The notes under the pieces were generated by a model, which saw only the letters and a program-made list of their open reading frames with translations, searched no databases and was not told the DNA's origin. This document shows, one piece after another, positions 13,653-56,130 of a stretch of 64,000 nucleotides of DNA. Within the stretch, counting starts at the first letter, position 1; each line of letters starts with the position of its first letter. Made by a program: the position numbers and the translations under genes. The DNA comes from Rhodamnia argentea (taxonomy: Eukaryota > Streptophyta > Magnoliopsida > Myrtales > Myrtaceae), in contig NC_063153.1 in NCBI RefSeq assembly GCF_020921035.1, positions 10,726,001 through 10,790,000 of the forward strand. Direction: 5' to 3'.

Positions 13653-13692
13653 CAACCGAATTAACGGCATTTTGCCCTTCTTCGCGCGCAAA
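13653..13692 (+). promoter_or_regulatory. Conserved promoter block, kinase copy A
   Basis: CAACCGAATTAACGGCATTT followed by TTGCCCTTC and CGCGCGCAAA. It matches the block 230-300 bp upstream of the other kinase copies. The E2F-like word is altered here (CGCGCGCAAA instead of CGCGCCAAA). Confidence 0.5.
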
Positions 13693-13965
13693 AAGTAACG
13701 GTTGAAACGGAGTCAAAAGCACTCGGCCTCCCTCTCACAGGCTCACACTTCCCACTTCTATCTTCTCTCTGCAAAGAAACCAAAAAGAAGACTGAATCAA
13801 TCCAAGAAGTTGATAAAATTCTCAGCTTCCTAGTTCTAAGAAAATCCCCACGCACACATCTCAGATTTGTTCACTCGGAGGACAAGATTGCGGGGAAGAA
13901 GAGCAAGGAGGAGGAGAAGAAGGGGGCTTCGGAATGGTCGGTAATATTTTATAGACAAGATAGAC

Positions 13966-16900
13966 ATGGATGATTTTATTTCTCAGGCAAGTCACGTAGG
14001 AATTCCGGGACTTGAAGATGAGTGGCAAAGCGACAGTCCTCCAATTCCAGAGGAGGTACGTGATTTCTCTCGAGTATGTTTGGATATTTTGCTTTCTGGT
14101 TTGACTGAATCTTTTTTGCGCGTTTTCCGCGGTTTCCATGGATAAAGAAAAGGAAATTGCCCGTGAAGTCGTGTTCGATGGCTTGCGCATTTCGGGTCGT
14201 TCTTGTTCTCTTCTTTATGACTGCGCCAGAAACTCAATTCGAAAGAGAAAAGAAGTATGTTAGCGGATAATCTTCAAGGAAGTTTTCTGGCTATTTTCTG
14301 GGAATTAATGCTATGATGTAATTATCACAGATTAACACTTTAGGCCATCAACTACTTTTCCCTATTTGAGAATTCATGCATTCCCTGAAGACGTGGTAAC
14401 TGATCTATGGTTGCAATAGTTTTAGTTAAGTGCAGTTGGGTTGATGATTTCGCTATTAGCAAGCTTCGAGTACGCCTCTCAATGTGTACTACATATTGAA
14501 AGTTTTACTGTCTCAGGTACAGATTGATGACTCTCCAATTTACAGAATAGAAAGACAACTGGGTAGGGGAGGTAATGGCCTTGTATGTGCCGGTCGACCT
14601 ATAGGTCCTTCAACTCCTAGTGGTCAAACTGGTCCACGTCCACCGGAGGTACCGCCTTAAAGCTCCAATTGATTTTTCAGTTTTGCAGAGTCAATTCATG
14701 CTTTTTTGCTGAGATAATCAGTACAACACTATCTAGGTAGCGGTAAAGTTTCAGCGGAAGCATCCCAGTGGAAGCGAAGCCGGCATTCCTCATGAGTGGG
14801 AAGTTTATGAGTGAGTCACTGAGAATGTTTCCATGTTCGTTTTGTTTACATTGGATTCTAGCACATGAAATCTCATCAGTTATTCGAATCTCACATTCAT
14901 TCTTTTACTGCATGTTGTGCAGTGAATTGGGCGAAAATCACGGCATTCCACTGCCGCGGGTGCATTATAGAGGGCAACAAGGTGACTATAACATCCTGGT
15001 ATGCGCAATTCCCTTTGAAGAACGATTTCAAATTTTTTCTCAGATGCTTAAGTTTTTGATGATCTGCCTCGCATATGCAGGTCATGGATTTGCTTGGACC
15101 CAGTTTACATGCTCGGTTGATCGATAACTGTCCATCGTATGTGCCCTCTTGAAGTGCCTACTCTATGGTTTCTCTTTGAAAATCGAACGTTGTATCAGGT
15201 TATGCATCTTTGTTATACTAATTCTTACCTTTTCCATTGTTTCAGCATGCCATTGGCGGCAGTTGCTTGTGTTGCTGTTGAGGCGATCTCTATTTTCGAG
15301 AAGCTGCACTCTAGAGGGTAATGGACGGCGATCTTCTGATTTCGTTTCTGCTTTTCAATGTCCATCAAGTTGTTCCCTTTGTCGGAGTATCTGAGTTGAT
15401 TTCAGGAAACCAGTGTCTTTTCTTGGCAGGTACATTCATGGGGACGTAAAACCTGAAAACTTTTTGCTCGGTCCTCCAGGAACTCCCGATGAGAGAAAAT
15501 TGTTCCTGATCGACCTTGGATTAGGTTATCTGCAAGTTGCATATACAGACTTATATCATAAGAAACCGAAACTAGAAAACAATCTGTCTCATTGTTGTTT
15601 CATCATCTGCAGCTGTGAGATGGAGACATCATTCGAGCAGTTCGCATGTTAGGTACCATCAATCTCCGAACCAATTCAGGTGGGGTTCAAGTGGTTTTTA
15701 TCATCTTTACAGGCAATGCCCCGTCCAATGAGCCTTCACTCACCAATATACAACAAGTTAACTATTTGCTGCAGAGGAACGCTTCATTTCGCGAGCGTGC
15801 ATGCTCATCTCGGTAGAACGAGTAGCCGAAGAGATGACCTGGAGTCACTGGCATACATGCTTGCTCTCCTTATCCGCGGTCATTTGCCTTGGCTTGGATT
15901 TGAGGTTTCAATGTGCTTAAAACCAGAGAAGATGATTTTCAACCTGACAGATGAATCTGCCTTTCTAATTACTGCCGCTGTTTCAGGCAGAGGATAGGGT
16001 ATGCAAGAAAAAGATGGCCACTCCTTTGGAAGCTCTATGTCACTCTTGCCCTCCGCCTTTCCTGCAATTCGCTGAGTTTGCGGTAAACTTGAGATTCGAC
16101 GAAGATCCAAACTACGCAAGATACATCTCCCTTTTCCGTGGGATCATTGGTGAAAACCCATATGTTTGGCCTGTGAATGCTCATGCTGCTCAGGAGGTAC
16201 CGTCTTATTCATCTAAATATGCGGGTTTCGTAGCTTCTCGAGAAGCAAGATGTTTGTCAAATACTCTGATCGGAACTCGTTCTCTATGTGAGCCATATCA
16301 TTCTCTTGTTTTGACATGCATTTGTCAGTCAAATGAAGGCGACGTGCTACCAGAGAGCCCCCTATCGCGAAGGGGACTGAGGAGATCACGATGGATAAGC
16401 ATTTTCCACTCACATCCACCCATTAGGCAAAGGTGAGGACTTAGACCGACTTTACCTTGAGTCTGTTTACAGATCATTATGCCTCGGTTATTGACTTTGA
16501 TTGTCCTGGAAGATAAAGATGAAGTGCTCATCATCTCATCCACATCTTATTCTGGGTAGGATTTGCTACAATGTGGACGATGTGGACCTACCTCTATGCA
16601 TCGAGGAGGCACGTGCGGATGGAATGTATGTTAGCAGTGTGGCTTCCCACTTGGATTTGTGGGCCGTGGTAATGGATTCCGGCACTGGCTTCACTGATCA
16701 AGTTCATACTATTGCGCCCGACTTTCTTCCCCAGGTTGCACTCGTGCTGCCTTAAATTGGACTTTCATCTCAAAACGGTACATCAAGCCCCATCGACGGG
16801 ATCCCCGATTGGGCGTGACTTGACAGCTTATTTTTTGTTGTTGAAGGGCTGGATTAGGAGACAGTGGAGGAGGAACTACCACATCACTGCAATTGCCGGA

Positions 16901-17657
16901 GCAGATAATGGTAGCCTACTAGTTATAATGTCCAAGGGTTAGTCAGTGAATGACGCTTTAATCTCTATTTCCAGCAACAGCTATTGTTTGTACCTCATCG
17001 GTAATATGAGCTCTTCTTCATTTTACCGAATTCAGGGCCTCGCAAGTGTTGGCAATGTTACCGTGTCACCGGCACATTCCCTTACAGTTGGATTAAGAGG
17101 AAATGGGCGCTTGGTACTTATGTGACCGCCATGGCCACTGTGGGACAAAGCTGGGTAGTCGTCATGTCCTCTGCAGCCGGATTCGTCCGCCAGGTTTTGC
17201 CATTCTTCTGTGGTTCCTTTTTCTTCTTCTTTCCTAGATTTCTCTTTCGAAGTGTCTAGAACTGGAAAAACCAATCTGATTTTTGTTTCTTACAATGAAC
17301 TTTAAGGTTGTAGAGCTGGATTTTCAGTACCCGTTTGAGGGAATTTACGAAAGGTGGAATCAAGGCTACTTCATCACTTCGGTTGCAGCAACTCCGGCTC
17401 AGGTAGCTTTTGTCTTCAGCATTCCAGAAGAAGAAGAAGTGCCGGTAAGAGGATCTCAAGAGGCAGTCCAGACTTCACATTTTCCCGAAAGAGTAGTGAC
17501 GGTGATTATTTTAGGCCATTTTACGAGCATCTAGCTTTTGGTTGCATTGCTCTGATACTGTGAGATTCATATTGATTCTTATTCTCATCTTTTGCAGGAG
17601 AGTTGGACTAGGAATTACTACATGTCCCTTCTTTGCTACGGCAGAACTGTTTCGTGA
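13966..17657 (+). CDS. MUT9-like/HD16-like protein kinase, copy A
   Basis: Sixteen exons: 13966-14055, 14517-14648, 14737-14810, 14923-14998, 15081-15136, 15246-15317, 15430-15524, 15613-15679, 15775-15904, 15987-16196, 16329-16432, 16560-16734, 16847-16937, 17036-17193, 17307-17501, 17598-17657; 594 residues, all phases agree. The CK1-related kinase domain has a glycine loop LGRGGNG (46-51), VAVK with Lys78, HGDVKPEN (Asp172, Asn177; HGD replaces HRD as usual in this family) and DLG Asp195. The C-terminal half is the WIS...W-type repeat region of MLK/HD16 proteins, ending CYGRTVS. Known relatives are nuclear: Arabidopsis MLK/PPK kinases act on histones and photoreceptor signalling, rice HD16 on Ghd7 and SLR1. 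The N-terminus is only ~30 residues before the kinase, shorter than in those relatives. It is the most diverged full copy and looks active. Confidence 0.85.
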
Positions 17658-18509: not shown

Positions 18510-20676
18510 TAGTTCGCGAAATAGTTCAGCTGTAGCAAAGAAGAGAAATATAGTGATTCCCAGCCCACCCTTCCTGCAAAAAGATGAGAGAAGTCAGAAG
18601 CCACAAATCACCCAGAATCAAAGTCAGTTCAACCAAAGCTATATGCTTGTGATTTCGAGTCCCTAGACTCTGCAAACGAATCGAGCAAATCAATGAAACA
18701 ATAGCATTTGCTGCTTGGAATAGAAATCAAGCATTATCATTCACCGACTTACCCTTGTACATTATAACTAATAACCAGCCGCTATAGACTCCAGCTACTG
18801 CAGTGATCTGGTAATTCTTGTATCCGCACAACTCTTCCCAAACCCAGTCCTTCAAACAACAACAAAAAGCCGAGTCAGGTTCCCAGCCCAATGCGGCTCT
18901 TCGATGCACCAGTTCAGGTCCACATCTTGCACATTGGAACAAATCCTATGAGAAAGAGATGCATTTGAAAATTGAAAAATTTATAATTGAGGTGTGATGA
19001 TCCGAGGACAAACTCAAGGTACCGTAAAAGAAGAACATGTGAGGCATAAGTCCTTACATCTGCAACATGCGTGGATGTGGATCGAAAATGCTTATCCCTT
19101 GTGATGTGCTCGACCCTGTTTGTGTTGGTGCTCTCTGTAGTGGCTCGTCTTCTTCATTTAACTGTGCACGAGCGTGTTGGTAAGCTCAGATTAAAAAGTT
19201 TGCAGACATCGCTTGCTTCTTCAGGGACCAAATCTGTCAATTGTGAGGAATAAGATAGTTACTTCCTGAGCAGAGTCAGCATTGACAGGTCAAACATGCA
19301 GGTTTCGACCCACCATCCGACAAAAAACAGAAATGTATCCTGCATAGTTTCGTTCTAACCTGAAGTCCAAGTTCCACACCAAATTGGTGAATCGCAGGAA
19401 CGGCCAAGGACGAGCTGCACAGAGGTCCTGGAGGAGTAGCCATCTTTTTGTCGCAAACAAGGAAAGGCCTACCGTCTCCCCGAAGCTGACCATAGTGGTT
19501 AAGAAGACAGATAACAATGCTCGAGGGTTTTTAAGAACCATCTTCTCTGGTTCTAAGCAAATTGCGGCGTGAAATCCCATGGCAAATGACCATGGAGAAG
19601 AAAAACGAGCCAGTAGCACAAGGACTCCAGGTCATCTCTTCGGCTTTGTTCTACCAACAAGAGCATGCACGCTTCCAAATCGAGCCATTCCTCTGCAACA
19701 AGAGCCTGCACACTTCAGGTTGTTTTTATTCTGTTGAATGTAAGCGATCATGAGACAAGGCAGGCATATCATATCACGTATATAGACGATAGAAACCACT
19801 TCTACCCAACCTGAATTTGACTGGAGATTGATGGAACCTAACATGTGAACCAGTCAAATAATCTCCCCATCGCACAGCTGTCATAAATGATAAAACAGAG
19901 AGACAGAAGTAATCTTTGTTCTTAGTTATTTTTACTTCATTAAGATATAAATCTTGACCTAATCCAAGGTCAACCAGAAGCAACTTTGTCTCTTCAGGAG
20001 TTCCTGGAGAACCAATCACAAGATTGGCAGGATTTCTGTCCCTGTGAATGTACCTGCCAGGAACGCCCAAGGATAAGCGAAAACTGAAATGGTACTAACT
20101 GACTTACAAAAGCGCTTCACCCAAGTATGCAAAGAATGTCGGGAAGCCTGGTTTTTGCGAGAATCATAAACTTGACACTTCGATGAAGAAAGCGATAACA
20201 GACATCGAGAACAGAAATGAGATTGTAAAATCGATCGGCCATTACCCTCTAGAGTGCAGCTTCTCGAGTACAGAGATCGATTTGACACAGCAAGACAACT
20301 ACCCTCTCCAGTGGCATGGTCAGTCGAAGAAAGGGAAGGGCTAAATATCAGAAAAAGCATAGAATCTGATACAACTGCTCAAACTTCAAAGAGAAACTAC
20401 AGCTTAGGCACTTCAGGAGGAAACTTAAGCTGGCCAGGTTTTAGTCAGACTTGTAAGCCCGGTCCAAGCAAATCCCAGACCTGCTAACCGTCAGGGTGTC
20501 TTCGCTCAAATCTAACACCACCTGGACAGTGGCGTAGTTAAATTCAAACTGCATGTGGACCAGTTTGACCCCTTTGAAGTCGAAGGACCAACGGTGTCGA
20601 ATGCCATGAACTTGTCTGAAAGTTCCCTCCCTGGTTGTCCTCCTACTCTGCAAATCGGAGAATCACAGGTCTGAAC
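18510..20676 (-). pseudogene. Inverted, decayed kinase copy A'
   Basis: Minus-strand remnant closest to copy A. Recognisable pieces, going right to left: exon 2 (from 20676), a fused exon 3/exon 5 remnant near 20450-20550, exon 6 (LEKLHSRG-type, near 20250), exon 7 (about 19960-20056, reading YIHRDRNPANLVIG, then GTPEETKLLLVDLGLG), exon 8 (AVRWGDYLTGSHVRFHQSP), exon 9, exon 10 (KKMATPPGPL to YISVFCRMVGRNLHV), the end of exon 11 near 19070, exon 13 (DWVWEELCGYKNYQITAVAG) and exon 16 (ends near 18510). Exon 4 and several C-terminal exons are missing, and in-frame stops occur (for example after NLHV and in exon 16). The catalytic loop has HRD where the array has HGD. It is tail to tail with copy A, so it probably arose by inverted duplication. 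Confidence 0.8.
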
Positions 20677-20689
20677 CTGAGAAAGTGGA

Positions 20690-21052
20690 ATTTTCGGTGC
20701 TTAAACGTTCATGGTGTAGATGAAACTTGCACATTGAAATTGTTGAACCGGCTGCATTGTAACAGAAAGCGTAAAGACTTGTCGGTAACATGTTCTTGAC
20801 AGGATGAACGAGTTCTCAACCGGAGCATAAGTAGTTGAAGACCCACGTTGGTCTCACAAGACTCGAGCCTCCTCCTTCACAATCTTGTCCTTAGAAATGG
20901 GAAAGAGATATATCTCTTCCTTCTGAACCGGTCGATTCGTCTTTGCCTTGGTCCAAATCGAGTTTTTGGTTTTCTTTGGAGAATGGCTGACTCATTTTGA
21001 CTTCAGTTGACCGTTATAAGACGTCAGTGGCAATTTCCAGCAGAATATATCT
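20690..21052. other. Intergenic DNA right of A'
   Basis: No gene or known motif recognised. This is the 5' side of the inverted copy, and any promoter block there is too decayed for me to see. Confidence 0.4.
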
Positions 21053-21780: not shown

Positions 21781-21904
21781 AACTAAACGGCAATTTCTAA
21801 TTAAAACTATGCAAGTTGATAACCATAACTCAGGGTAGATCGGTCATTTTATTGAGGACCCCCTCGTGCATTGTCCCAATCAATTATAATAAGCATTCAG
21901 ACGT

Positions 21905-21964
21905 CAACCGAAATAACAGCATTTTGCCCATCTTCGCTTTCAAAAGTTCGTTTTTTCCGCCAAA
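21905..21964 (+). promoter_or_regulatory. Conserved promoter block, kinase copy B
   Basis: CAACCGAAATAACAGCATTT followed by TCTTCGCTTTCAAAAGTTC and CCGCCAAA, about 270-215 bp upstream of the copy B start. The E2F-like word reads TTTGGCGG on the reverse strand, a weaker variant of the TTTGGCGCG in copies C, E, G and I. Confidence 0.5.
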
Positions 21965-22178
21965 ACAAACAAGACTCATCTTGCACTGCCCCACTCATTC
22001 TCTTCAAGAACCCAAATCATTCTTTCAGAGAAAAAGAAACAAGAACTTGAAAGGAATAACTCTGCTTGATCGTGCCTTTCTCTTCCAAAGAAGATCTCCT
22101 CCGTATCAACTCAGGCCGACACCAGTGGAGACGACTGCAGTTCGAAACAGTCAAGAGTAGGATTAAAGCTGGGTCGAT

Positions 22179-25100
22179 ATGGATCAGTCTAGAAGTCAGA
22201 GTCCTAAAGGCAACTCTCCTCAAATCCCAGAAGAGGTACTTGCATTGTTCTTTGAAATGGGGGGTTTGGTAGAGGACGTATGAAAATGCAAGTCAGATCA
22301 CATGTTCAATAGTTCCCAAATTTTGGGCTATTCTTGCTTTTAGGTCTGAGGAATTCAAATCCCAAGGGAACCATCAGTGTCGTTCTTGATTTTGTGTTCA
22401 TTCAGCAAAATTAAACAGAGCAAAAGGGTCAAACACGACAAAAATTTAGGTGGGTCGTCTTCGGCTATTTCATCGGCTGGACAGAAAAAGGGGAAATTTT
22501 CGTCTATTTCAGATTTGTGTTTAAAATACCACGCCAAGTTTTATGAATTGAGTTTCTGTTATCTACTACGTTTGCCCCATTTGAGAAGTCAAATGCATGA
22601 CAATCTCAGATTATATGTTACCGACACTGGTAAAATTTGAGAAACGATGCAATCGGTTCAATAATTCACCATGCAAGTTCCAAATATGTACTGAAAATAT
22701 GAATGTCTCAGGTTCAGATCGGCGATTCTCCAGTGTACAGGATAGAGAGAAAAATGGGAGAGGGATTTTTACAGCAAGTTTATGTTGGGCGAGCCATCAG
22801 TCCAACTTCAAATCATCAAGCTGGTGTGGAAGCAACAGAGGTATGGCCTCGAGCTCTAATCCATTCATTTGCAGATAATTCAATGCATTGGCTTCGTTAC
22901 CCAAACTGATTTAAGGCGTCACTGTCTAGGTAGCCATAAAATTCGAGCATAAAGACTACAAAGGAGATGAAGGTGGCATCCTTAATGAGTGGAAAGTTTA
23001 TGAGTGAGTCTTCTAGTATTGTTGCTATATTGTGCTCTTGCAAGTGAAATTGGGTTAGGGTGTTGATTTTCGCATCTGCGTTCTGCATATTGTGCAGAGA
23101 TCTGGGTAAAAGCCATGGCATACCACTGCCACAAATACATTACAAGGGGCAACGAGGTGACTATTATGTCACGGTATGTGCATTCCCTTCGACTTGTATT
23201 TTGTATCTTAGAATGCGAAGTTTTTGATGATCTTCTTCGTATATGCAGGTCATGGATTTGCTTGGACCGAGTTTACTAGACTCTTTGGTCATCAACTGGC
23301 GAAAGTATATTTTCCGGTGAAGTTAACAGCTTTTACACTGTCTGCTCTTCAAGTTCTCTTAAAGAATCTCTGATTCTCTTTCAGCTTCTGATGTTAGCTC
23401 CTTCCTTACTACTTCAGCCTTCCATTGGAAGCAATTGCATGTATTGCCGTTGAAGCAATCTCCATACTTCAGAAGCTGCACTCTAGAGGGTAATAGCTGA
23501 CTAGCTTCCAATTGCATGTTTGTTAGCATTTTCTTTATCAACTGGTCAATCTCCATATTTCGCTGGTCTGACATTTTGTGACGTTTCTCATGTATCCTTC
23601 TTATCCGGGCAGGTACATCCATGGTGACATAAAACCAGATAACTTTTTGCTTGGCTCTCCAGGAACTCCTGAAGAGAAGAAATTGTTTCTGACTGGCCTT
23701 GGATCTGGTATGCGCCAATTCTTAAATTTGCAGCTACAAGATGGCGAAGGAGAAATGCATATGTCTCATCGTTTATTCACAACTTGCAGCTACGAGATGG
23801 CGAGATCGCTCCACTAGTTCCCACATTAAGTACAACCAAACTCCAGATGAATTCAGGTTCAGTCAAAATGATGTGAGCATCTTCATATGCACATACCACA
23901 TTCCCTCTCAAGTAATTACTGTTCCATGCACTACAAAAAAATTTCTTGCAGAGGAACAATTCCATTTGCAAGTGTGCACACTCAACTTGGTAGAACAAGT
24001 AGCAGAAGGAACGACCTAGAGTCTCTGGTTTACGTGCTCGTTTATCTTATCCGGGGTCATTTGCCTTGGCAAAGACATGAGGTTTCATTTCCTATTCCAA
24101 GAGAAGACTTCTTGAACCACACACCTGTATCCCGTCTTTTGATCGCCACAGTTTTTTCAGGGAGAGGATAAAGCTTCCCTTGTTTGCAAGGAAAAGATGG
24201 CCACTCCTCCATACACCCTGTGTGGCACTTGTCCTGAGCCTTACCTGCAGTTCGCCACATTTGTGCTTAATCTGAAATTCAATGAACTACCACATTATGC
24301 TAGATACATTTCCCTCTTCCATGAGATCATTGGTAACAATCCATATGTTTGGCCCGTGCACACCGGTGTCTCTCAGGAGGTAGCATTCTGTTCCTGCAGA
24401 AAGCAATAGATGTCAATGAAATTTCTAATTGAGCCATGTCATTCTCTTTCATGTGATACGACGTATCAGGTACAACGCAAGCGAGTGAGGTTAAATGATG
24501 ACGAAGACCCATCAAAATTACGAATGGGGTTGAAACTAACACAATGGATAAGCGTTTATGATATGTATCCTCCAACCATGAGGCAAAGGTAAGGACTTGC
24601 ATTTCAGATTTACTTAACTTTTCTGTGGTACCTGAGTTTATTGATAATCTTCCTCTTTCTTGCAGATACTTCTCTAATTTGGATTATGCCGACCTCCTCT
24701 TACACATTGAGAAGGGACATGAGGAGGGAATGTACATCACCAGTGTGGCTTACAGTTCTCGCTCTAAGTCATGGGCCGTAGTAATGGATAATAGCATCGG
24801 CTACACTGCTCAGATTTATACTTTTTCATGCGGCTCTCTTCCCAAGGTTCTGTTTGGAGCGGCTTTACTTTGGAATTTCATAGATAGATCCCAATAGTTG
24901 TATTAGACCCGTTAGAGTCGAAGATACATCAACCTCTTACAGTGGACTCTTCATTAGGACTATCTTGACTGCTTATTTCCTTTTTTGAAGGAATGGATTG
25001 GGAAAAAATGGTCGCAGGACTTCTACATCACTGCAGTGGCTGGAGCAGATGACAGCAGATTTTTAGTTATAATGTCCAAGGGTCGGTCTGTGAATGCTTA

Positions 25101-25794
25101 ATTGCTATATTGATGACTCCTTAGTGACGTTGTACTTTACCATTTACCAGTTTTTCTTGGTATGCACATAGGGCTCCAGAGTGTTCGGCAGGCTTACATT
25201 GTTGCTAGTCCGTTTCCTTTCGATTGGATCAAGAAGAAGTGGGCAGAAGGTCTTCGTGTCACTTCCATGGCCACTTACTGGAGGAATTGGGCAGTAGTTG
25301 TGTCCAAAGGAACCGGATTTACTGACCAGGTTCTTCTTTCTTATTCTCCTTTGCAGAGATCAGCCGATTACTCCTCATTTCAAGATTTTCCTTTGAAGTG
25401 TCTGGAACCTTAAGATATTGCTCTGATTTGGTTTCTTGCGCTGAACTTTTAAGGCCGTAGAGCTGGACTTACAGTATCCGGCCGAAGGCATTCGTGAAAG
25501 GTGGAAGCAGGGCTATTACATCACTTCGGTCGCGGCCACTTCAGATGAGGTTGCTTTTATCTTTAGCAAGATAGGAGGAGGACCAGCAACTGCAAGTGTA
25601 AAGCAAGAGACGCTTCTGACTTTCGATTTTCCTGGTGATAGTAAGATCGAGGTGATTATTTTGGTCCTTCCACAAAGCATCTATTTGGTTGTTTTAGCTC
25701 TGCTTCACCAAGTACTTGTTATCATCTTATGCAGGAGGAGAGGGCAAGGGATTCCTATATTTCTTCTCTTTGCTATGGTCGAACCATTGCTTAA
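22179..25794 (+). CDS. MUT9-like/HD16-like kinase, copy B (likely pseudokinase)
   Basis: Sixteen exons: 22179-22235, 22712-22840, 22930-23003, 23098-23173, 23249-23304, 23418-23489, 23613-23707, 23790-23856, 23952-24081, 24161-24379, 24470-24588, 24666-24846, 24991-25081, 25172-25329, 25454-25651, 25735-25794; 593 residues, uninterrupted. Lys66 of VAIK and HGDIKPDN (Asp160, Asn165) are kept, but the metal-binding DLG motif reads GLG (Gly183), and the glycine loop is GEGFLQ, losing its third glycine. Both changes hit ATP/Mg handling, so catalysis is doubtful although the frame and all splice sites are intact: a pseudokinase rather than a pseudogene. The C-terminal domain (exons 10-16) is complete and ends CYGRTIA. 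Exon 1 is short (19 codons). Confidence 0.85.
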
Positions 25795-27640: not shown

Positions 27641-27647
27641 CAGAGGC

Positions 27648-27707
27648 CAACCGAAATAACGGCATTTTGCCTATCTTCTCTTTCAAAAGTTCTTTCTTCG
27701 CGCCAAA
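27648..27707 (+). promoter_or_regulatory. Conserved promoter block with E2F-like site, copy C
   Basis: CAACCGAAATAACGGCATTT starts 255 bp upstream of the ATG. CGCGCCAAA at 27699-27707 (TTTGGCGCG on the minus strand) fits the E2F consensus TTTSSCGC. The same pair at the same spacing is found before copies E, G and I. No TATA box was seen between the block and the ATG. Confidence 0.55.
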
Positions 27708-33290: not shown

Positions 33291-33298
33291 ATAACGGT

Positions 33299-34025: not shown

Positions 34026-34029
34026 GTGA

Positions 34030-43900: not shown

Positions 43901-44509
43901 CCAGTGGGTTCAGCAGGCTTATCATGTCACCAGTACATTTCCTTTCGCGTGGATCAAGAAGATGTGGGAAGAAGGTTTTCATGTCACCGCCATGACCACT
44001 TCCGGGAGTCGGTGGGTAGTAATTTGGACCAATGGAACCAAATTTACCAACCAGGTTGTTCCTTCTTTCTCCTTTTCTGAGACTGCCCATTTAATCCTCA
44101 CTTCAATATTTTCCTTTGGAACCAGAAGATTCTGCCTTGATTCGGTTTCTTGCGCTAAACTTTTAAGGCTGTAGAGCTAGATTTCGAGTATCCAGCCGAA
44201 GGCATTTATGAAAGGTCGAAGCAGGGCTATCACATCACTTCGGTCGCGGCCACTCCAGATGAGGTTGCTTTTATCTTTAGTAAGATAAAAGGAGCACCAG
44301 CAACTGCAATTGTAAAGCAGGAGACACTTCGGACTCCCAGTTTCCCCAACTATGATGTGATCGAGGTGATTAGTTTGGCCATTTTTTACCATCATCTATG
44401 TGGTTGCAGTGGCTCCGCTTCACCAAGCACTTGTTCTCATCTTCTGCAGGAGAGGCGGGCAAGGAATTACTATGTTTCTACTCTTTGCTACGGTCGAACT
44501 ATTGCTTAA
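40994..44509 (+). CDS. MUT9-like/HD16-like kinase, copy G
   Basis: Exons: 40994-41080, 41424-41555, 41637-41710, 41819-41894, 41971-42026, 42139-42210, 42359-42453, 42549-42615, 42708-42840, 42920-43138, 43217-43314, 43390-43570, 43715-43805, 43897-44054, 44168-44365, 44450-44509; 598 residues. Lys77, HGDIKPSN (Asp171, Asn176) and DLG Asp194 are kept; the third loop glycine is Arg (GKGGFR). The usual acceptor of intron 10 and the first codons of exon 11 are deleted. Either a new acceptor GCGCAG|TTAAAT is used, or the 78-bp remnant is retained, which also stays in frame (624 residues). Exon 9 has one extra codon. The donor at 43139 (GTGGGA) is weak. It looks like an expressible gene, but with an uncertain exon 10/11 junction. 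Confidence 0.8.
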
Positions 44510-45520
44510 GCTACCAAATATAAGTGCAATCAAGGACGTCTTAGCAAGCGACACGACAACTCTGCAAGCATGTTTTGCCATCTATTGTACATTTCTTACC
44601 GATCAAGCCTGTACGGAGTTGAATAATAACCAGTTCCTCTAATACCATATGGAATTAGTTGTATCCTCTTCGTCGTACTTTTTTGCCGGGAAGTTTTAGT
44701 ATTGATTCTGAAACTATTGAAGCTTACCAACAACCAGAAATAAAAGAATTAGACCTACATTTGGTAGATTTTGCCAATTGGTAACCAACTTCCATACATG
44801 AGATGCAACATTTCTTGACAAAAATTTCAGTACGCGTTAGGAACCGATGATGTTGTGACTGTCGGTCTTGCATGGTTGGAGTTTCAGAAACCAGACCAAT
44901 CAAACAAAAACCTGTGGCTTAATTCGTAACTTCAGAGAAAACATCAGAATATAGGGACATCAGGGTTGGAAGGAGCTGTCATCAGAGAAGTATTTATGCA
45001 GAGGAACGACCCCTTCTCTGTATGTCAAGCTGTTGCGGACAAGGTAAGGATCCGAGTGCTCGATTTTGCATCCGCTTGTTTGCAGACAAAGTAAGGATCG
45101 GCAAGAACATGTTGAAAAGGGAGGTAACCCAAGATGGTCGCCTTCCAACAAACAATAGTCATCAGGAAGGTAGAGTTAAATACGAGAACTACTTAGTTTG
45201 TTGAATGATCAGGCAGTTCAAGAGACACTCCCGGACAAGACCATCTCTGTATTGTTTCTTTAACATTGCTGTTGTCCTATCTTCTTTGCGATGAAGGTTA
45301 AAACTTCGCAAATGTATATTTAACTCTATGTTACATCAAGCAATATCGGTGGCGGCCAAGTTAAAGTTAGGATTATTTTAGGCATTTCCGTGGGTGAGGA
45401 ACGTGGAATCATGATAGGGGCATTTTGGCGACGGCAATGACAATTTCTGAATAATATCAGCGTAAAAACTAAGGATGCCTACATGTATTTTCCCAATAAA
45501 CTGTCATAAGCAATCAGACG
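44510..45520. other. Intergenic: shortened 3' module after copy G
   Basis: Diverged downstream module (44620-45300) with TATTTATGCAGAGGAACGAC near 44992, followed by the upstream sequence of unit H (TGATAGGGGCATTTTGGCGA near 45413). No gene seen. Confidence 0.45.
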
Positions 45521-45792
45521 TCAACCAAAATAACGGCAACTTGCCTGTCTTCGCTTTAAAAGTCCATTCTTCGCACCGAAACTAACAGACTCGCCCTCTT
45601 AATTCTCTTCCAGAACGCAAATCACCTTTCCTTATAAAAATACAGGAACAAGATTGAAAGGAAGAGTTCTGCTTAGTCATCCCTTTCTCTTCAAAAGAAG
45701 ATCTCCTCTATATCAAAGCTCGGTCGACATCAGTGGAGACGACGCAGTTCAGAACGAGCATGATTTGATCAAAGTTCACTGGGAGGCTAGAT

Positions 45793-48700
45793 ATGGATCA
45801 GTCCAGCAGCAGAAGTTGAAAAGGCGATGAGGGGCATCAAGATGAGAACCGAAGCAACGCTCCTCCTGTTCCAGAACAGGTACCTTGCATTGTACTTGGA
45901 AATGGCTGGTTTAATGGGGAGAGTAAAAGTCAAATCCCCTGCTCAATAGTTTGCGAATGCCGGGCCATTCTTGCTTTTCGGTTTGAGAGATCCATTTCCA
46001 AGGAGCAATCAGTGTCTTTCTTGTTTTTTTGTTTGTTCAGCACAATTAAACCGAGCAAAAGGGTAAAGCATGACAAAGATTTTCGTGGGTCATATTCGGC
46101 TATTTTATCGGCCTAAGAGAAAAGGGAGATTTAATCTAATTCAGATAGATGACAAAAATCGCCACGCAAGTTCTGTAGATTTTCTGTCATCAACTACTTG
46201 TGCTCCATTTGAGAACTCCATGCCTCACAGTGTCAGATTATAAGTTATCGACAGTTGTCAAGCTTTTAGATACAATGCCAACAGTTCAAGAATTCACAAT
46301 GCAAGTTCCATATACGTACTGAAAATTCTGATCGTCTCAGGTTCAGATCGATGGTTCTCCAGTTTACAGAATAGAAAGAGAACTGGGAAGGGGAGGTTAC
46401 GGGCAAGTTTATTTCGGTCAAGCCATCAGTCCTTCAACTTTAAGTGATCAAACTGGTGTGGAAGCAGCAGAGGTATGGCTTTGAGCTCTAATTTCTATAA
46501 GTTTGGATTTTTTCGTTACATTTGCGCCATTACATTGCACGATTTAATGCGGCAATATCCAGGCGGCCTTAAAATTCGAGCATAAAGACAGCAAAGTTGC
46601 GTAGTGATCTGGGTGAAGGTCATGCCATACCACTGCCACGAGTACATTCCAAGGGGCAACAAGGTGACTATTGTGTCGTGGTATGTACATTCCCTTCGAC
46701 TCGGGATTTGTTCTATTAGAATGGGGAGCTTTCAATGATCTTCTTTGTATATGCAGGTCATGGATTTGCTAGGACCTAGTTTAGAAGAATCCCCTATAGT
46801 CAACAACGTCCCAACATATGTTTCCTCTCGAAGTCAATAGCTTTTACAGTGTGCTCTTCTATTTCAACAACTTCTTTGTAAACATTCTTGTATTCTATTT
46901 CGGCTTCCGATGTTAGCTCTTTCCTTGCTACTTCAGCCTTCCATTGGAGGCAATTGCATGTATAGCCGTTGAAGCAATATCGATACTTGAGAAGCTGCAC
47001 CGTAGAGGTTAATAGATGATTAGCTTCCAATCTCATGTTTGTCAGCATTTCCTTTATCGGTTGGTGAAATCAGCATTTGGGTAGGCAAGACTAACGGAAA
47101 TATACGCCAGGTCTGAATTTTTGTGATGTTTCTCATGTATGCTTCTATTCGGGGCAGGTACATCCATGGTGACATAAAGCCAGATAACTTTTTGTTTGGT
47201 CCTCCAGGAACCCCTAAAGAGGAAACATTGTTTCCAACTGACCTTGGATTAGGTATTTGCCAATCCCATGAATAGTTCAACGGCCTAGGCATTAGTGATT
47301 GCGAAGCAGAAATGCACTTCTCATCGTTTGGCCTGTGCACACTGATCTCGCTCAGGTGGTAGTATCCTATTCCTACCGAAAGCAATAGATGTTAATGAAA
47401 TTTCTGATTCGAGCTCGCGCTCTAATTGGCCATGTCATTCTCTTTCATGCGATACGCAAGTACCTTGTACCGCTAAAGCCGGCGTAGTTAAATGGTGACA
47501 ATGAGCCATCAAAGAGAATACGGATGGGGTTGAAACTAACACAATGGATAAGCGTTTACCATGCGCGTCAACCCATGAAGCAAAGGTATGGACTTGCATT
47601 TCAGATTCCCTTTTTTTTTTTTCTGGGGTACCTTAAAATTTTTTATAATCTTCCTCTTTCATGCATATATTTCTCTAATTTAGACGAGGACGACCAGCTC
47701 TTACACACTGAGAAGGGACATGAGGAGGGAATGTACATCACCAGTGCGGCTTACAATTCTCGCTCTAAGTGATGGCCGTAGTAATGGATGATAGCGCTGG
47801 CTACACGGCTCAGATTCGTACTTTTTCAGGCGGCTCTCTTCCTAAGGTTCCATTTGAGCGGCTTACTTTGGGCTTTCATGCATAGTAGATCCCTATAGTT
47901 GCAGGCTGCAATCCTGATAATACATACCAGGAAGATCTTTTGTATTTGGCTTATTAGGAACATAGGTACATCAACCTCCTATAGTGTGGGATTATCGATT
48001 AGGACAGTCTTCACTGCTTATTTGCGCATTTGAAGGAGTGAATTAGGAAACAAGGGTCGAAGAACTTCTACATCACTGCAGTGGCTGGAGCAGACGACCG
48101 AAGATACTTAGTCATAATGTCCAAGGATCTGTCCTTGACAGCTTAATTTTTATTTTGATGACTCGTTAGTAACGTTATACTTCAACATTTACCCGTTTTT
48201 CTTGATATACACATAGGATCCCAGAAGGTTCGGCAGGCTTATCGCGTTACCGATACCTTTCCTTTCAAGTGGATCAAAAAGAAGTGGGCAGAAGGTTTTC
48301 ACGTCACCGTGATGACCACTTCAGGGTGCCGGTGGGCAGTAGTTGCGTCCAATGGAACCGCTTTTACCGACCAGGTTCTTCTTTCTTCTTCTCCTCTTCT
48401 GAGACCGCCCAATCACTCCTCGTTTCAAGATTTTCCTTTGAAGTGTCTGGAACCAGAAGATTTTGTTGTGATCCGGTTTCTTGCTCTAAACTTTGAAGGC
48501 CGTAGAGTTTGACTTACAGTATCCAGCCGAAGGCATTCATGAAAGGTCGAAGCAGGGCTATTACATCACTGCCAATCTAGATGAGGTTGTTTTTATCCTT
48601 AGTATACGAGACCGAGCACCGGCAACCAGTGTAGAGCAAGAGACACTACGGACTTTCAAATTTCCTGATGATAGGCACATCAAGGTGATAAGTTTGGCCC

Positions 48701-48826
48701 TTTTACCAGCATCTATTTGGTTGTATTAGCTCTGCTTCACCAAGCACTTGTTCACGTATTCTGCAGGAGAAGCAGGGAAGGAATTACTATATTTCTCCTC
48801 TTTGCTACGGACGAACCATTGCTTGA
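45793..48826 (+). pseudogene. Kinase pseudogene H
   Basis: Retains exon 1 (with a stop at its ninth codon), exon 2 (from about 46352), a truncated exon 3 fused straight to exon 4 near 46597, exons 5, 6 and 7, and exons 11 to 16 (the last 48767-48826). Exons 8, 9 and nearly all of 10 are gone: intron 7 is joined to the end of exon 10 near 47330. Further stops lie in exons 12 and 13, and the exon 6 donor is altered. At least six inactivating changes are visible. The promoter block (CAACCAAAATAACGGCAACT near 45522) has lost the E2F-like word (CGCACCGAAA). Confidence 0.9.
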
Positions 48827-49063
48827 GCTACCAAATATACGGGCAATCAAGGATGTCTAAAAGAGCGACACGACCGCTCAGCAATCAACAAGTCAATGAT
48901 CAATCCTGTACAGAGTTTAATACCATACTTTGGTGCAATTTGAAACTTTTCAAGCTTAACAACAACAACAACAACAGACAAAAAGAATTAGGCCTAGGTT
49001 TGGTAAATTTTGCCTTTCCCTCCATGATATGCAACATTGCTTGACAAAATGTTTCAGCATATT
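48827..49063. other. Short 3' flank of pseudogene H
   Basis: Part of the usual downstream flank (words such as GTCAATGATCAATCCTGTAC), ending abruptly near 49063 where unrelated inserted DNA begins. Confidence 0.4.
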
Positions 49064-50673: not shown

Positions 50674-50929
50674 AGTGAAGGGCGGAGGCAATGTTGGTGG
50701 ATGAGAAATTTGAATTGTGATGGGGGCATTTTGGGGAGATAAATGGCGATTTCTAAAGAAAAACCATAACGGTCACTAATGTCCGGGGCAATGCAAATTG
50801 GTAGCCCTAACCAACTGAGGGGGTGGACCGGTAATTTTGGTAAATAGAGGGTGAAAATTTGATACTAGCGTAAAATATGAGGATGTCCTAACATGGTGTC
50901 CCCATAAATTATCATAAGCAAGCACAGTT
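50511..50929. other. Upstream part of unit I
   Basis: Resumes the common upstream sequence (CTCCTCAAAATCCCGTCTGC at 50515), holds the GA microsatellite and the GTAGCCCTAA...CTGAGG words found before copies D, E and G. No gene. Confidence 0.5.
50625..50672. repeat. (GA)n microsatellite
   Basis: About 24 GA units. Shorter GA-rich runs occupy the same place in units C (27285-27310) and D, so the tract expanded from an ancestral GA-rich patch. Confidence 0.9.
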
Positions 50930-50990
50930 CAACCGACATAACGGTTTTTTTGCATATCTTCGCCGTCCAGAGTTCTTTCTTCGCGCCAAA
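50930..50990 (+). promoter_or_regulatory. Conserved promoter block with E2F-like site, copy I
   Basis: CAACCGACATAACGG begins 280 bp upstream of the copy I ATG; CGCGCCAAA is at 50982-50990. Confidence 0.55.
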
Positions 50991-51209
50991 AAAGCTAACA
51001 GACTTGCCTCGCGCTGCCTGCTCGTTCTCTTCAAGACCCCACTTCGCCTTTTCAAGAAAAGAAGGAACCAGATTGAGAGGAACAATTCTGCTTGATCGTC
51101 CCTTTCTCTTCAAAAGAAGATCTCCTCGATAATCAGAGCTCGGCTGAGGCCCGTGGGGACGAGGCGGTTTGGAACGAGCAAGACTAGATTAAAGCTTGGG
51201 AGGGTCGAT

Positions 51210-54200
51210 ATGGATCCGTCTGGAAGTCGAAGTCGTGAAGCCGGTGACGGGATTCAACATGAGGAACGAAGGAACACTCCTCCAGTCCTAGGACAGGTAC
51301 TTTGGATTGTTCTTGAAAATGGGTTGTTTACTGGAGACGGAATGCAAAATGCGAGTCGAATCCCAAGTTCAATAGTTCGCAAAATTTTGGGTCGTTCTTG
51401 CCTTTCGGTTTGAGAAACTCAAAATTCCAAGGAGCAATCAGTGTCGTTCTTGTTTTTGAAGTTGATTCAGAAAAATTAAACAGAGCATAAGGGTCAGACA
51501 TGACAAAGGTTTTGGTGGGTCATCTTTGGCTATTTTATCTGCCGAAGAAGAAAAGGGGAAATTTTCATCTAATTCAGATTGATCACTAAAATCCCCATGC
51601 AAGTTCTATAAATCAAGTTCTTGTCATCAACTTCTTTTGCACCATTGCAGAACTCCATGGATAACCATATCAAATTATATGTTACCGGCAGTTGTAAAGC
51701 TTTTAGGTACAATGCAACTTCCATATATATATGCTGATAAGTTGATTTGATTTTTTCAGGTTCAGATCGATGATTCTCCAGTGTACAGAATAGGAAGAGA
51801 ACTGGGAAAGGGAGGTTTCGGGCATGTTTATGCCGGTCTAGCCATCACTCCTCCAACTTCAAGTGATCAAACGGGTGTGGAAGCCGCAGAGGTACGGCTT
51901 CGAGCTCTAATTTTTTCAGGTAATTCGTTATACTTGTGCCATTACTTTACATGATTTGATACGGCGCTATCCAGGTGGCCATAAAATTCGAGCATAAAGG
52001 CAACATAGGATGTGAAGGCGGCATCCCTCATGAGTGGAAAGTTTATGAGTGAGTCCTTTGGAATAATTGCATGAACGATTTTGCCATGCCATGATCTTGC
52101 ATGTGAAATTATATTCGGGTGTTGAATTCCGCGTCTGAGTTCTGCGTATTATGCAGTGATCTAGGTGAAAGTCATGGCATACCACTGCCACGAGTACATT
52201 ACAAGGGGCAACATGGTGACTATCATGTCATGGTATGTGACCCGTATTTTGTACTTCTATAATGCAAGGGTTTTGATGATCTTCTTCGTATATGCAGGTC
52301 ATGGATTTGCTTGGACCTAGTTTAGAAGAAGCCCCTTTGGTCAACAACGTCCCAACGTATGTTTCCTCATGAAGTTAACAGCTTTTACGGTGTCTGCTCT
52401 TCAGGCTCTCTTAAACATTCTTGAATTCTGTTTCAGCTTCTGATTTTAGCTCTTTCCTTGCTACTTCAGCTTTCCATTGGAAGCGATTGCATGTATAGCC
52501 GTTGAAGCAATATCGATACTTGAGAAGCTGCACTCTAGAGGGTAATCGATGACTAGCTTACAATCGCACGTTTGTTAGCACTTTCTTCATTGGTTGGTCT
52601 GACTTTTTGCTCACAGGTACATCCACGGTGACATAAAACCTGGTAACTTTTTGCTTGGTCCTCCAGGAACCCCTGAAGAGAAAAGATTGTTTCTGACTGA
52701 CCTTGGATTAGGTATCTACCAATTGCATGAATACTTTTTATGCCCCAGAAATTAGTGATTGCGAAGGAGAAATGCGTATGCCTCATCGTTTACTCATGAC
52801 CTTGCAGCTACAAGATGGCAAGATCCCTCCACCGGTTCACACATGAAGTACAGCCAAACTCCATATGATTTCAGGTTCAGTTAAAATTATTTGCATCTTC
52901 ATATGCGCATACCACATGCCCTAACTGTGGTATTACCATTCCATGCACCGAAAAAAAATTGTTGCAGAGGAACAACTCGATTTGCAAGTGTGCACGCTCA
53001 ACTTGGTAGAACAAGTAGCAGAAGAAACGACCTAGAGTCTCTGGTTTACATGCTCATTTATCTTATCCGCCGTCATTTGCCATGGCAAGGACAGCAGGTT
53101 TCATTCCCTATACTCAGAGAAGATTTCTTGAACCAAACACCTGTATTGGTCTATTGATCGCCACAGTTCTTTCAGGGAGTCACTAAGACTCTTGTTTGCA
53201 AGCAAAAGATGGCCACTCCTCCAGAAACCTTGTGTGACACTTGTCCTGAGCCTTATCTGCAGCTCACCGCGTTTGTGCTTAATCTGAAATTCGATGAGGA
53301 ACCAAACTATGCTAGATTCGTTTCTCTCTTCCATGGGACCGTTGGTCAAAATCCATACATTTGGCCAGTGCACACTGATGTTGCTCAGGAGGTAGTATCC
53401 TATTCCTATGAAAAGGCAATAGATGTTAATAAAATTTCTGATTCGAGCCATATCTTTCTCTTTCTTGTGATACCCACGCATCGGGTACCATGTAAGTGAG
53501 TGCAGTTAAATCATGACGGCGAGCCATCAAAGGACATTCGAATGGGGTTGAAATTAACACAATGGATAAGTGTTTACAATGCGCATCTAACCATGAAGCA
53601 GAGGTGAGGACTTGCACTTCCGGTTTATTTCCTTTTTTGGTACCTTGAGTCTATTTATAGCCTTCCTGTTTCTTGCAGATATTTCCATAATTTGGATGAT
53701 GTCGACCTGCGCTTACACATTGAGAAGGGACATGGGGAGGGACTGTATGTCACCAGTGTAGCTTACAATTCTCGCTCGAAGTCATGGGCCTTAATAATGG
53801 ATGACAGCACCAGCTTCACTGCTCAGATTCATACCTTTTCAGGCTGCTCTCTTCCCGAGGTTCTAGTTGATTGGCTTTACTTTGGGCTTTCATGCACGGT
53901 AGATCCCAATCGTTGCATGTTAAATCCTGATGATACGTACCAGGAAGAATTTTTGTATTAGACCTATTAGGACAGTCTTGACTGCTTATTTCCTTAGTTG
54001 AACGAGTGGATGAGGGAGTATCGGAAGAAGAGCTACTACATCACTGCAGTGGCCGGAGCAGATGGCGACAGAGTCTTAGTTATAATGTCCAAGGGTCGGT
54101 CGGTGAATGCAAAATTTCTTTCTTTAGGACTACTTAATAACGTTATACTTACCATTTGACCGGTTTTTCTTGATATACGCATAGGGATAAGGAGTGTTCA

Positions 54201-54807
54201 GCAGAGTTATCATGTTAGAAGTACATTCCCTTTCAAGTTGATCAAGCAGAAGTGGGCAGAAGGTTTTCATGTCACCGCCATGTCCACTTTTGGGAGTCGG
54301 TGGGTAGTAGTTTTGTCCAACGGAACCAAATTTACCAATCAGGTTACTTGTTTCTTTCTCCTTTTCTGAGACTACCCAATTACTCCTCTCTTCAAGATTT
54401 TCTGTTGAAGGGTCTGGAACCGGTAGATTGTGCTCTGATTCGGTTTCTTGTGCTAAACTTTTAAGGCGGTAGAGCTAGACTTCCAGTATCCGGCCGAAGG
54501 CATTCATGAGAGGTGGAAGCAGGGCTATTATATCACTTCAGTCGCAGGCACTCCGGATGAGGTTGCTTTTATCTTCAGTAAGATAGAAGGAGTAACAGCA
54601 ACTGCAAGTGTAGAGCAAGAGACGCTTCGGACTTCCAATTTCCCTGATGATAATATGATCGAGGTGATTAGTTTGGCCATTTTTCACCAGCATTCATTTG
54701 GTTGCATGAGCTCCGCTTCACCAAGCACTTGATCTCATCTTCTGCAGGAGAAGCGGGCAAGGGATTACTATATTTCTTCTCTTTGCTACGGTCGAACCAT
54801 TGCTTAA
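51210..54807 (+). CDS. MUT9-like/HD16-like kinase, copy I
   Basis: Exons: 51210-51296, 51760-51891, 51975-52048, 52157-52232, 52298-52356, 52470-52541, 52617-52711, 52808-52874, 52968-53097, 53176-53391, 53506-53603, 53679-53859, 53998-54094, 54185-54342, 54466-54663, 54748-54807; 599 residues, phases consistent. The catalytic set is the best preserved of the array: loop LGKGGFGHV, Lys77, HGDIKPGN (Asp172, Asn177), DLG Asp195. Two splice sites had to move. The ancestral acceptor before exon 11 is ATCGG and its first codons hold a TGA, so TGCAG|TTAAAT further in is used, as in copy G. The exon 13 acceptor GAAG became GAAC, and CTTAG|TTGAAC just upstream keeps the frame and adds Leu-Asn. The start of exon 10 reads GVTKTLV instead of GEDKAFLV. 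Likely functional if these acceptors work. Confidence 0.8.
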
Positions 54808-55380
54808 GCTACCAAATATATGTGCAATCAAGGGCGTTTTTAGCAGGCGACACGGCCACTCTTTGTCATACTCTTTTGCTGGAAGATTCTGAAACTTTTG
54901 GCAGATTTGGCATCCACTTTGTTTGCAGAAAATGTAAGGATCGGCAAGAATCTGTTGAGAATAGTGATAACCTGAGATGGTGGCTTTTCCAACAAACAAT
55001 AGTCATCTTTATCTTCAGGACCGCAAATTCAGGCACAAAAACTACTCAGTTTGTTGAATGATCAAGCGGTTTGAGAGACATCCCCTGTTACTTTACCATT
55101 TTTACATCTTATCAGAAAACTTTACCAGCAAATATGCACCAGTTGCCTTACAAATTTTTTCTCGAATTTGTTAATATGGTTCCTCAAAATCCCGCCACCA
55201 CAAACTCATGCCTCTTTCTCTCACCCACCACCATACCACGATTAGGTATGAGCACCGCCGAGGATCGAAAAACGATCTGCAGCTGAGTTAGAGTACGGAT
55301 TATTTTGGGCATTGTCCGTGGGTAAGGAACTTGGAGTTATGATAGGGGCGTTTTATGAAATGACGGGAATTTGCCTGTCT
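54808..55380. other. Intergenic: reduced 3' module after copy I
   Basis: Shortened downstream flank, then CCTCAAAATCCCGCCACCAC near 55183 and the upstream sequence of unit J. The CAACCGA block is mostly lost (TGACGGGAATTTGCCTG near 55361) and the E2F-like word is degraded (TTCATGCCAAAA). Confidence 0.45.
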
Positions 55381-55627
55381 TCGCTTTCAAAAGCCCATTC
55401 TTCATGCCAAAACTGACGGACTCGCCTGGCGTTGCCCACTCATTCTCTTCAAGAACCCAAATCACTTTTCCTGTTAGAAATACAGAAACAAGATTGAAAA
55501 GGAAGAATTCTGCTCGATCGTCCCTTTTTCTTCGGAAGATCTCCTTGACATCAGAGCTCGGTTGACAGCGGTTTCAGACGACACAGCTCGGAACGAGCAA
55601 GATTCGATCAAAGCTGGGAGGGAAGAT

Positions 55628-56130
55628 ATGGATCATTCCAGCCGTGGAAGTTGTAAAGGCGATGAGGTGCATCAAGATGTAAGCCGAAGCAACACTACTC
55701 CGGTCCCAGAATGGGTACCTTGCATTGTACTTAGAAAATGGCTGGTTTAATGGAGAAAGTGCAAGTCAAGTCCCGTCCCCTGCTCAATCAGTGTCTTTCT
55801 CTTGTTTTCGTGTTGGTTCAGAACAATTAGACAGAGCAAAAGGGTCAAACATGACAAAGATTTTCGTGGATCATCTTCGGCTATTTTATCTGGCGAAGAG
55901 ACAAGAGGGATCTTTAATCTAATTCAGATAGATAACAGGAATCCCCATGCAAGTTCTGTAGATTTTCTGTCATCAACTACTTGTGCTTCATTTGAGAACT
56001 CCATGCATCACAGCGTCAGATTATAAGTTACCGACAGTTGCAAAGCTTTTAGAGACAATGCAAATGGTTCAAGAATTCCCCATGCAAGTTCCAAATTAAT
56101 ACTAAAAATTTCGATTTGTCTCAGGTTCAA
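55628..56130 (+). pseudogene. Kinase remnant J (exon 1 and start of exon 2)
   Basis: Exon 1 (55628-55714) reads MDHSSRGSCKGDEVHQDVSR, then SNTTPVPEW, followed by a full intron 1. Exon 2 breaks off after GTTCAAATAGA (near 56127) and runs into a piece of the 3' module. A large deletion thus removed exons 2-16. It marks the right end of the array. Confidence 0.85.

What the first reader, a model, noticed from the sequence alone, without database searches (positions are those of the whole stretch)
13653..56130. Eleven-copy tandem array of a MUT9-like/HD16-like kinase gene
One 16-exon kinase gene occurs as five full-length copies (A, B, C, G, I), one truncated copy (E) and five wrecks (A', D, F, H, J) within 43 kb. 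Nine of them follow a direct repeat of roughly 5 kb that includes promoter, gene and 3' flank. The known families (Arabidopsis MLK/PPK, rice HD16) are small and dispersed, so a local burst of a chromatin and light-signalling kinase is unexpected.
Basis: partly seen in the sequence, partly recalled or inferred. Interest (0 to 1): 0.72.

Follow-up and report, generated by a model that had tools for sequence, protein, structure and literature searches.

The report
Tandem array of derived MUT9-like kinases
A plant chromosome carries eleven side-by-side copies, four of them apparently intact, of an offshoot of a normally solitary and very conserved light- and chromatin-signalling kinase, and this offshoot has lost the family's positive charge and evolves far faster than its parent.

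Summary
The array is real. An unnamed 346.7 Mb plant assembly holds five dispersed canonical MUT9-like kinase (MLK/PPK) genes. The window adds eleven units of one derived clade: A, B, G and I are open through 16 exons with every intron GT-AG; C and E are nearly intact; H, D, F, J and inverted A' are wrecks. A damaged twelfth unit (C4d) lies 6 Mb away on the same contig. Units are about 64-87% identical, so not an assembly artefact.

Trees, fourfold-site distances and exon lengths make the array one clade, nearest the canonical gene C4e (C4:20.577 Mb). E looks recombinant, which supports unequal exchange.

They are not simply extra copies. Net charge is -0.2 to -20 (A, B, G, I) against +10 to +20 in the five canonicals. 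dN/dS is 0.3-0.7 against 0.03-0.04. All seven copies tested keep the two residues shown in print to be catalytic; B has lost the DFG-type Asp. The short exon 1 is not special to the array: C4e has it too.

Best reading: an old duplicate of the C4e lineage that expanded by birth and death into weakly constrained, probably altered kinases. Expression, function and other plants could not be tested.

The parts
13966..17657 (+). copy A, intact, 16 exons, 594 aa; earliest branch of the array clade
   Evidence: 15 of 15 introns GT-AG
18696..20842 (-). A', inverted wreck
   Evidence: minus-strand matches of about 63-72% to other units; many frameshifts, stops
21817..26782 (+). unit B (promoter block, gene, 3' flank)
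22179..25794 (+). copy B gene, intact, 593 aa; DFG-type Asp replaced by Gly and third Gly of the glycine loop by Gln
27433..32608 (+). unit C
27903..31604 (+). copy C gene, nearly intact: donor of intron 5 not GT, stop 4 codons before the end
33296..34792 (+). D, wreck: promoter piece and exons 2-3 joined to 3' flank
35124..39918 (+). unit E
35487..39140 (+). copy E gene: open to exon 14, frameshift in exon 15, donor 15 lost; looks recombinant, switch near 36040-36290
39974..40307 (+). F, wreck: exons 2-3 only
40515..45309 (+). unit G
40994..44509 (+). copy G gene, intact, 598 aa; third Gly of glycine loop is Arg
45454..48887 (+). H, wreck: exons 8-9 and most of 10 missing, stops
50697..55084 (+). 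unit I
51210..54807 (+). copy I gene, intact, 599 aa; glycine loop, Lys, catalytic Asp and DFG-type Asp all kept; exon 13 uses an acceptor 6 nt upstream of the lost one
55357..56334 (+). J, wreck: promoter, exon 1 and part of intron 1 joined to 3' flank

Best explanation
The lineage of canonical gene C4e (C4:20.577 Mb) already had a short exon 1. A duplicate of it, on the same contig, spread as promoter-gene-3' flank units of about 5 kb by unequal exchange, with frequent death of copies (birth and death). At least A, B, G and I have been kept under weak purifying selection. They encode CK1-type kinases that have lost the positive charge of canonical MLKs and have a relaxed C-terminal (DUF7477/PPKC) domain. 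A and I, and perhaps G with its changed glycine loop, are predicted active; B is a likely pseudokinase. Shown: anatomy, clade, charge change, dN/dS, mosaic copy E. Inferred: that they are expressed, and that they act on other or fewer partners than canonical MLKs.
For: Gene models and splice sites. Pkinase + DUF7477 in A, B, G, I as in canonical C7. One clade, 7 of 7 rows, 100/100 without outgroup and 91/96 with the CK1 outgroup; array + C4e split 95/92 without outgroup. 4DTV to C4e 0.41-0.53 in 7 of 7, against 0.66 or more (or saturated) to the other four canonicals and 0.77-0.79 for C4e versus C2 and C8. Exon 1 is 87 nt in C4e as in C, E, G, I, but 116-134 codons in C2, C6, C7, C8; exon 2 is 132 nt in C4e and in 6 of 7 array-clade rows. 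pI 5.31-6.96 in A, B, G, I versus 8.79-9.27 in the five canonicals. dN/dS 0.59 (G-I), 0.60 (B-I), 0.73 (B-G), each bootstrap interval below 1; 0.31-0.38 for A versus B, G, I; 0.03-0.04 in the 2 of 10 canonical pairs that could be measured. Neutral simulation expects 5.1-7.0 stops on branches like those of B, G, I, P(no stop) 0.0035 or less. Catalytic Lys and Asp kept in 7 of 7. E mosaic.
Against: No transcript data. dN/dS near 0.6 also fits copies now decaying after a shared constrained past; the C-terminal interval of B-G and B-C includes 1 and exons 12-14 diverge about as fast as introns. With the CK1 outgroup the five canonicals group together (85/94) and C4e is not sister of the array. dS to canonicals is near or beyond saturation. 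The short exon 1 is shared with the constrained, basic C4e, so it is no sign of a new role. Charge does not prove loss of nuclear import; B and E keep RKRVRL and A has RRGLRRSR in the linker.
Confidence: 0.7

Rival explanations
1. A graveyard: all array copies are non-functional and the intact frames are leftovers of recent constraint.
For: 7 of 11 units are broken or damaged; dN/dS 0.5-0.7 among B, C, E, G, I; B lacks the DFG-type Asp; exons 12-14 diverge about like introns.
Against: Four frames and 60 of 60 of their introns intact; pairwise dN/dS of B, G, I below 1; stop-free survival improbable under neutrality (branch lengths set by hand); exons 3, 4, 6, 7, 9 at 0.89-0.92 identity against 0.765 for introns (average includes damaged C, E and C4d).
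Confidence: 0.2
2. The copies still do the canonical MLK job (nuclear phosphorylation of histones, PIF3, CRY2) and the array only raises dosage.
For: Same exon structure and domains, catalytic Lys and Asp kept; short exon 1 shared with constrained C4e; PPK1 binds PIF3 mainly through its kinase domain (PMC5437280, passages).
Against: Charge shifted throughout exons 2-16; C-terminal domain relaxed although it is needed for CRY2 interaction (PMC7084540, passages); dN/dS about 8 to 20 times the measured canonical values.
Confidence: 0.08
3. Assembly artefact or collapsed heterozygosity.
For: Tandem repeats are error-prone in general (general knowledge).
Against: Unit-to-unit identity is about 64-87%, far below allelic or mis-join levels; the dispersed unit C4d has its own lesions.
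Confidence: 0.02

Closest known systems
MUT9-like kinases / Photoregulatory Protein Kinases (Arabidopsis MLK1-4 = PPK1-4, also AEL); rice EL1/Hd16
   Same: CK1-type kinase domain followed by the DUF7477 (PPKC) domain; HGD-x-K-P-x-N catalytic loop; Lys and Asp equivalent to PPK1 K175 and D267; exon pattern of the five canonical genes of this genome; short exon 1 as in canonical C4e
   Different: Tandem array; near-neutral to acidic; 50-60% identical to the canonicals, which are 78-90% alike; two extra codons in exon 4; dN/dS 0.3-0.7 instead of 0.03-0.04; basic KRGR and KKKVR/KKKLR runs of the linker absent or partial
Tandem clusters of other plant kinases (clusters of Pkinase hits in this same genome)
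   Same: Several kinase genes side by side
   Different: Those clusters were seen only as Pkinase hits and not analysed; the other MLKs of this genome are single and dispersed

Membership tests
MLK/PPK family | CK1-like Ser/Thr kinase domain | tested here: met
   Pkinase above cut-off in A, B, G, I; best solved relatives of copy I are CK1 alpha and delta
MLK/PPK family | Conserved C-terminal PPKC domain (Pfam DUF7477) | tested here: met
   297-315 bits in A, B, G, I; 538 in canonical C7; cut-off 27. That DUF7477 is the PPKC domain is my reading from its place in C7
MLK/PPK family | Catalytic Lys and Asp (PPK1 K175, D267) | tested here: met
   7 of 7 rows A, B, C, E, G, I, C4d; role of the residues from PMC5437284 passages
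MLK/PPK family | N-terminal extension, 20 to 410 aa in print | tested here: inconclusive
   exon 1 encodes 19-30 aa, at the low end; canonical C4e 29 aa, C2, C6, C7, C8 116-134 aa; printed range from PMC7084540 passages
MLK/PPK family | Basic protein, pI 9.09-9.66 in Arabidopsis | tested here: not met
   pI 6.18, 6.96, 5.31, 6.25 for A, B, G, I; 8.79-9.27 for five canonicals; printed range from PMC7141126 passages. A property of known members, not a test of descent
MLK/PPK family | Nuclear localisation | not testable with these tools
   needs tagged protein in plant cells
MLK/PPK family | Groups with MLKs, not with CKL/CK1 | tested here: met
   tree with one CK1 outgroup row; DUF7477 present; only own-genome relatives available
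Active protein kinase (copy B) | DFG-type metal-binding Asp | tested here: not met
   Gly in B; Asp in the other 11 MLK rows and in the CK1 row

The most novel reading that the evidence does not exclude
The array is a rapidly turning-over family of MLK-derived decoys or regulators, for example partner-binding (pseudo)kinases that compete with or guard canonical MLKs, whose RCD1 complex is implicated in immunity and whose partner RCD1 is bound by a downy mildew effector in Arabidopsis. It would be a case in which a deeply conserved signalling kinase was turned into an arms-race gene family.
Probability: 0.1. Interest if true: 0.75.

Novelty: new variant of a known kind. Interest (0 to 1): 0.38.

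Why it matters
MLKs are few, dispersed and strongly conserved. An intact, charge-shifted side branch with dead copies, a mosaic copy and a likely pseudokinase, beside a constrained sister gene with the same short exon 1, offers natural variants for asking what the basic surface and the DUF7477 domain do, and whether a conserved signalling kinase can be released into a birth-and-death family.

Tried and rejected
Truncation as an array novelty: my first reading was that the array lost the long N-terminal extension. The claim was withdrawn; interest was lowered for it from 0.42 to 0.38, and the dosage rival raised from 0.06 to 0.08. Assembly artefact: rejected on divergence. Copies drawn from several ancient MLK clades: rejected within this genome. 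C10:2434923 hit: not an MLK retrocopy but an intronless CK1 (CKL-type) gene, used as outgroup. Clear positive selection: not found; pooled over B, G, I, pN exceeds pS in 1 of 28 windows (columns 400-450: 0.200 versus 0.183). A clade of the six window copies without C4d: weakly rejected (p-AU 0.045), so C4d lies among them. Rfam: 0 matches in the window at gathering score. Promoter block: no more conserved than introns (0.748 versus 0.765). Left out of the protein tree, dN/dS and 4DTV: A', D, F, H, J (5 of 11 units) because they are fragments or heavily broken; E was cut after exon 14.

Literature: nine answered searches. From titles and abstract starts in the listings, passages of six papers (PMC7084540, PMC8140429, PMC6175486, PMC7141126, PMC5437280, PMC5437284) and one section of the first, no tandem MLK array was seen; 'DUF7477' returned 0 papers. 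Most subscription papers are not held, and no paper was read whole.
Full report
Setting. The window is C4:10726001-10790000 of an unnamed 346.7 Mb assembly in 74 contigs, a plant by its genes. No annotation, expression data or other plant genomes were at hand. All gene models are my own, from a spliced aligner and a genomic alignment of eight units.

Observation. Self-BLAST gives nine units in direct orientation between 21.8 and 56.3 kb (B, C, D, E, F, G, H, I, J), an older relative A at 14.5-17.7 kb and an inverted wreck A' at 18.7-20.8 kb. Fuller units hold a promoter block, the gene and a 3' flank; start-to-start spacing of neighbouring copies is mostly 4.3-6.0 kb, and about 7.5 kb across wreck D. 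Identities between units run from about 64 to 87%, which argues against an assembly duplicate. A, B, G and I are open across 16 exons with 15 of 15 introns GT-AG each (for copy I an exon start mis-set was put right, and exon 13 uses a shifted acceptor). Their products are 594, 593, 598 and 599 aa. C has a GC as the only donor candidate of intron 5 and a stop four codons from the end. E is open to exon 14, then frameshifted with donor 15 lost. H lacks exons 8-9 and most of 10 and has stops. D and J join 5' parts to 3' flank. F is exons 2-3.

Rest of the genome. A search with C-terminal exons found 26 matches, all in this array, at C4:4.734 Mb, or at five other loci: C2, C8, C7, C4:20.577 Mb ('C4e') and C6. 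These five are intact from exon 2 on, with one exon pattern. C4:4.734 Mb ('C4d') is a whole unit on the opposite strand with promoter and 3' flank, the latter interrupted by about 3 kb, and two stops in the reading frame. A 337-base piece matching the region of exons 2-3 lies at C8:13993730.

Family. A, B, G and I match Pkinase and DUF7477, as canonical C7 does. Copy I's best solved relatives are CK1 alpha and delta. The Lys and Asp whose mutation kills PPK1 (K175, D267; PMC5437284, passages) are kept in 7 of 7 rows. B alone has Gly for the DFG-type Asp and Gln for the third glycine of the loop; G has Arg at that glycine; E has Arg at the first.

Exon 1. In C2, C6, C7 and C8 exon 1 encodes 116-134 residues; in the array clade 19-30. 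I first took this for a loss in the array. It is not: C4e, the nearest canonical, also has 29 residues, starting at a Met that matches an internal Met of the long forms, with stops in frame just upstream and a trace of the longer frame across one of them (51% over 51 aligned positions to C6). The short exon 1 (87 nt in C4e, C, E, G and I) and the 132-nt exon 2 (C4e and 6 of 7 array-clade rows) are therefore shared traits that support descent from the C4e lineage.

What is special to the array. Net charge at pH 7 is -8.4, -0.2, -20.0, -7.4 for A, B, G, I (pI 5.31-6.96) against +10.0, +11.3, +15.7, +10.8, +19.7 for C2, C8, C7, C4e, C6 (pI 8.79-9.27). Exons 2-16 alone give -0.3, 1.0, -14.7, -6.3 against +12.3 to +16.9 in the five canonicals. 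The linker's KRGR and KKKVR/KKKLR runs are present in five of five canonicals; B and E have RKRVRL; A has RRGLRRSR instead; C, G, I and C4d have none of these. Exon 4 is 76 nt in 7 of 7 array-clade rows and 70 in five of five canonicals. In print, MLKs have pI 9.09-9.66 (PMC7141126, passages), are reported as nuclear, and need the C-terminal part for CRY2 interaction (PMC7084540, passages).

Descent. The protein tree holds A, B, C, E, G, I and C4d together (100/100 without outgroup; 91/96 with CK1), with A first and G+I a pair. Without outgroup, C4e lies on the array's side of a 95/92 branch against the other four. With CK1 as outgroup the five canonicals group together (85/94), against a C4e-array sisterhood; the CK1 row is a long branch. 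Fourfold-site transversions favour C4e: 0.41-0.53 to all seven, against 0.66 or more to the others (4 of 7 comparisons with C6 saturated). A lies at 0.16-0.21 from the rest, the rest at 0.06-0.12. Founder, split of A, and later growth are thus successive events.

Expansion. At sites where G and I agree against B, E follows G and I at 0.89 before and 0.67 after a switch near 36290; where B and C also agree (100 sites) it falls from 0.89 to 0.30 near 36049 (0 of 1000 permutations as strong in either). The 5' tree joins E to G+I at 100/99 and rejects E with B (p-AU 7e-06). The middle tree puts E with H (84/89). The 3' tree puts E with B and C at 86/92, though E with G+I is only marginally disfavoured there (p 0.066). 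D and F also end near exon 3. Unequal exchange or conversion between units is the simplest account.

Selection. Only 2 of 10 canonical pairs have measurable dS; their dN/dS is 0.04 (C2-C8) and 0.03 (C8-C4e). B, G and I have 0.59-0.73 with all three upper bounds below 1; A against B, G, I has 0.31-0.38. For the C-terminal domain alone B-G (0.86) and B-C (0.84) do not differ from 1. Simulated neutral drift on branches of 0.08-0.105, set by hand from pairwise dS, gives 5.1-7.0 stops and P(no stop) of 0.0035 or less for B, G, I, indels not counted. Over B, C, E, G, I and C4d, exons average 0.835 identity and introns 0.765; exons 3, 4, 6, 7 and 9 reach 0.89-0.92 and exons 12-14 only 0.77-0.79. So the kinase part is still guarded and the middle of the C-terminal domain barely so.

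Mechanism. Most likely these are CK1-type kinases released from the strong constraint of canonical MLKs, kept in several versions and lost often. What they phosphorylate is unknown. A speculative form of this is a decoy or guard family: RCD1 binds MLKs and is bound by the downy mildew effector HaRxL106, and an mlk1,3,4 mutant has raised salicylate-induced PR1, though it showed no enhanced resistance to a bacterial strain (PMC6175486, passages). Nothing in the sequence shows it, and no clear sign of positive selection was found.

Novelty. Published counts of MLK homologs are 4-10 in listed eudicots and 5-15 in listed monocots (PMC7084540 Table 1). The nine answered searches named in Tried and rejected showed no tandem MLK array. 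The family is known; the tandem, charge-shifted branch is a variant of it. Clusters of kinase hits are frequent in this genome, which keeps the interest moderate.

Noticed in passing
window 6389-9442 and 9982-13060: A recent direct duplication (93.5% identical) of a ~3 kb block holding a Polyketide_cyc2 gene on the minus strand; another member at 2294-2770, and similar DNA continues left in L033.
   Followed up: partly
L031:3694-3846 (canonical C4e, exon 1): The canonical MLK gene nearest the array has a 29-residue exon 1 behind in-frame stops, with a trace of the longer ancestral frame across one of them.
   Followed up: yes
L035:3900-4796 (C10:2434.9 kb): An intronless, intact CK1 (CKL-type) gene with similar AT-rich stretches on both sides; looks like a retrocopy.
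   Followed up: partly
L027 (reverse complement) about 6040-9005: About 3 kb without a match to the array interrupts the 3' flank of the dispersed unit C4d, perhaps a transposon; not identified.
   Followed up: no
C8:13993730-13994066: A 337-base piece, 70% like the region of exons 2-3 of the array, about 12 Mb from the MLK gene on that contig.
   Followed up: no
window 49475-49964: Short tandem repeats (29-31 base units) in two blocks between H and I, similar to DNA near C4d (L027 rc 866-1051).
   Followed up: no
C7:9.00-9.18 Mb, C2:22.2-22.5 Mb, C9:20.98-21.12 Mb: Dense clusters of Pkinase hits elsewhere in this genome.
   Followed up: no
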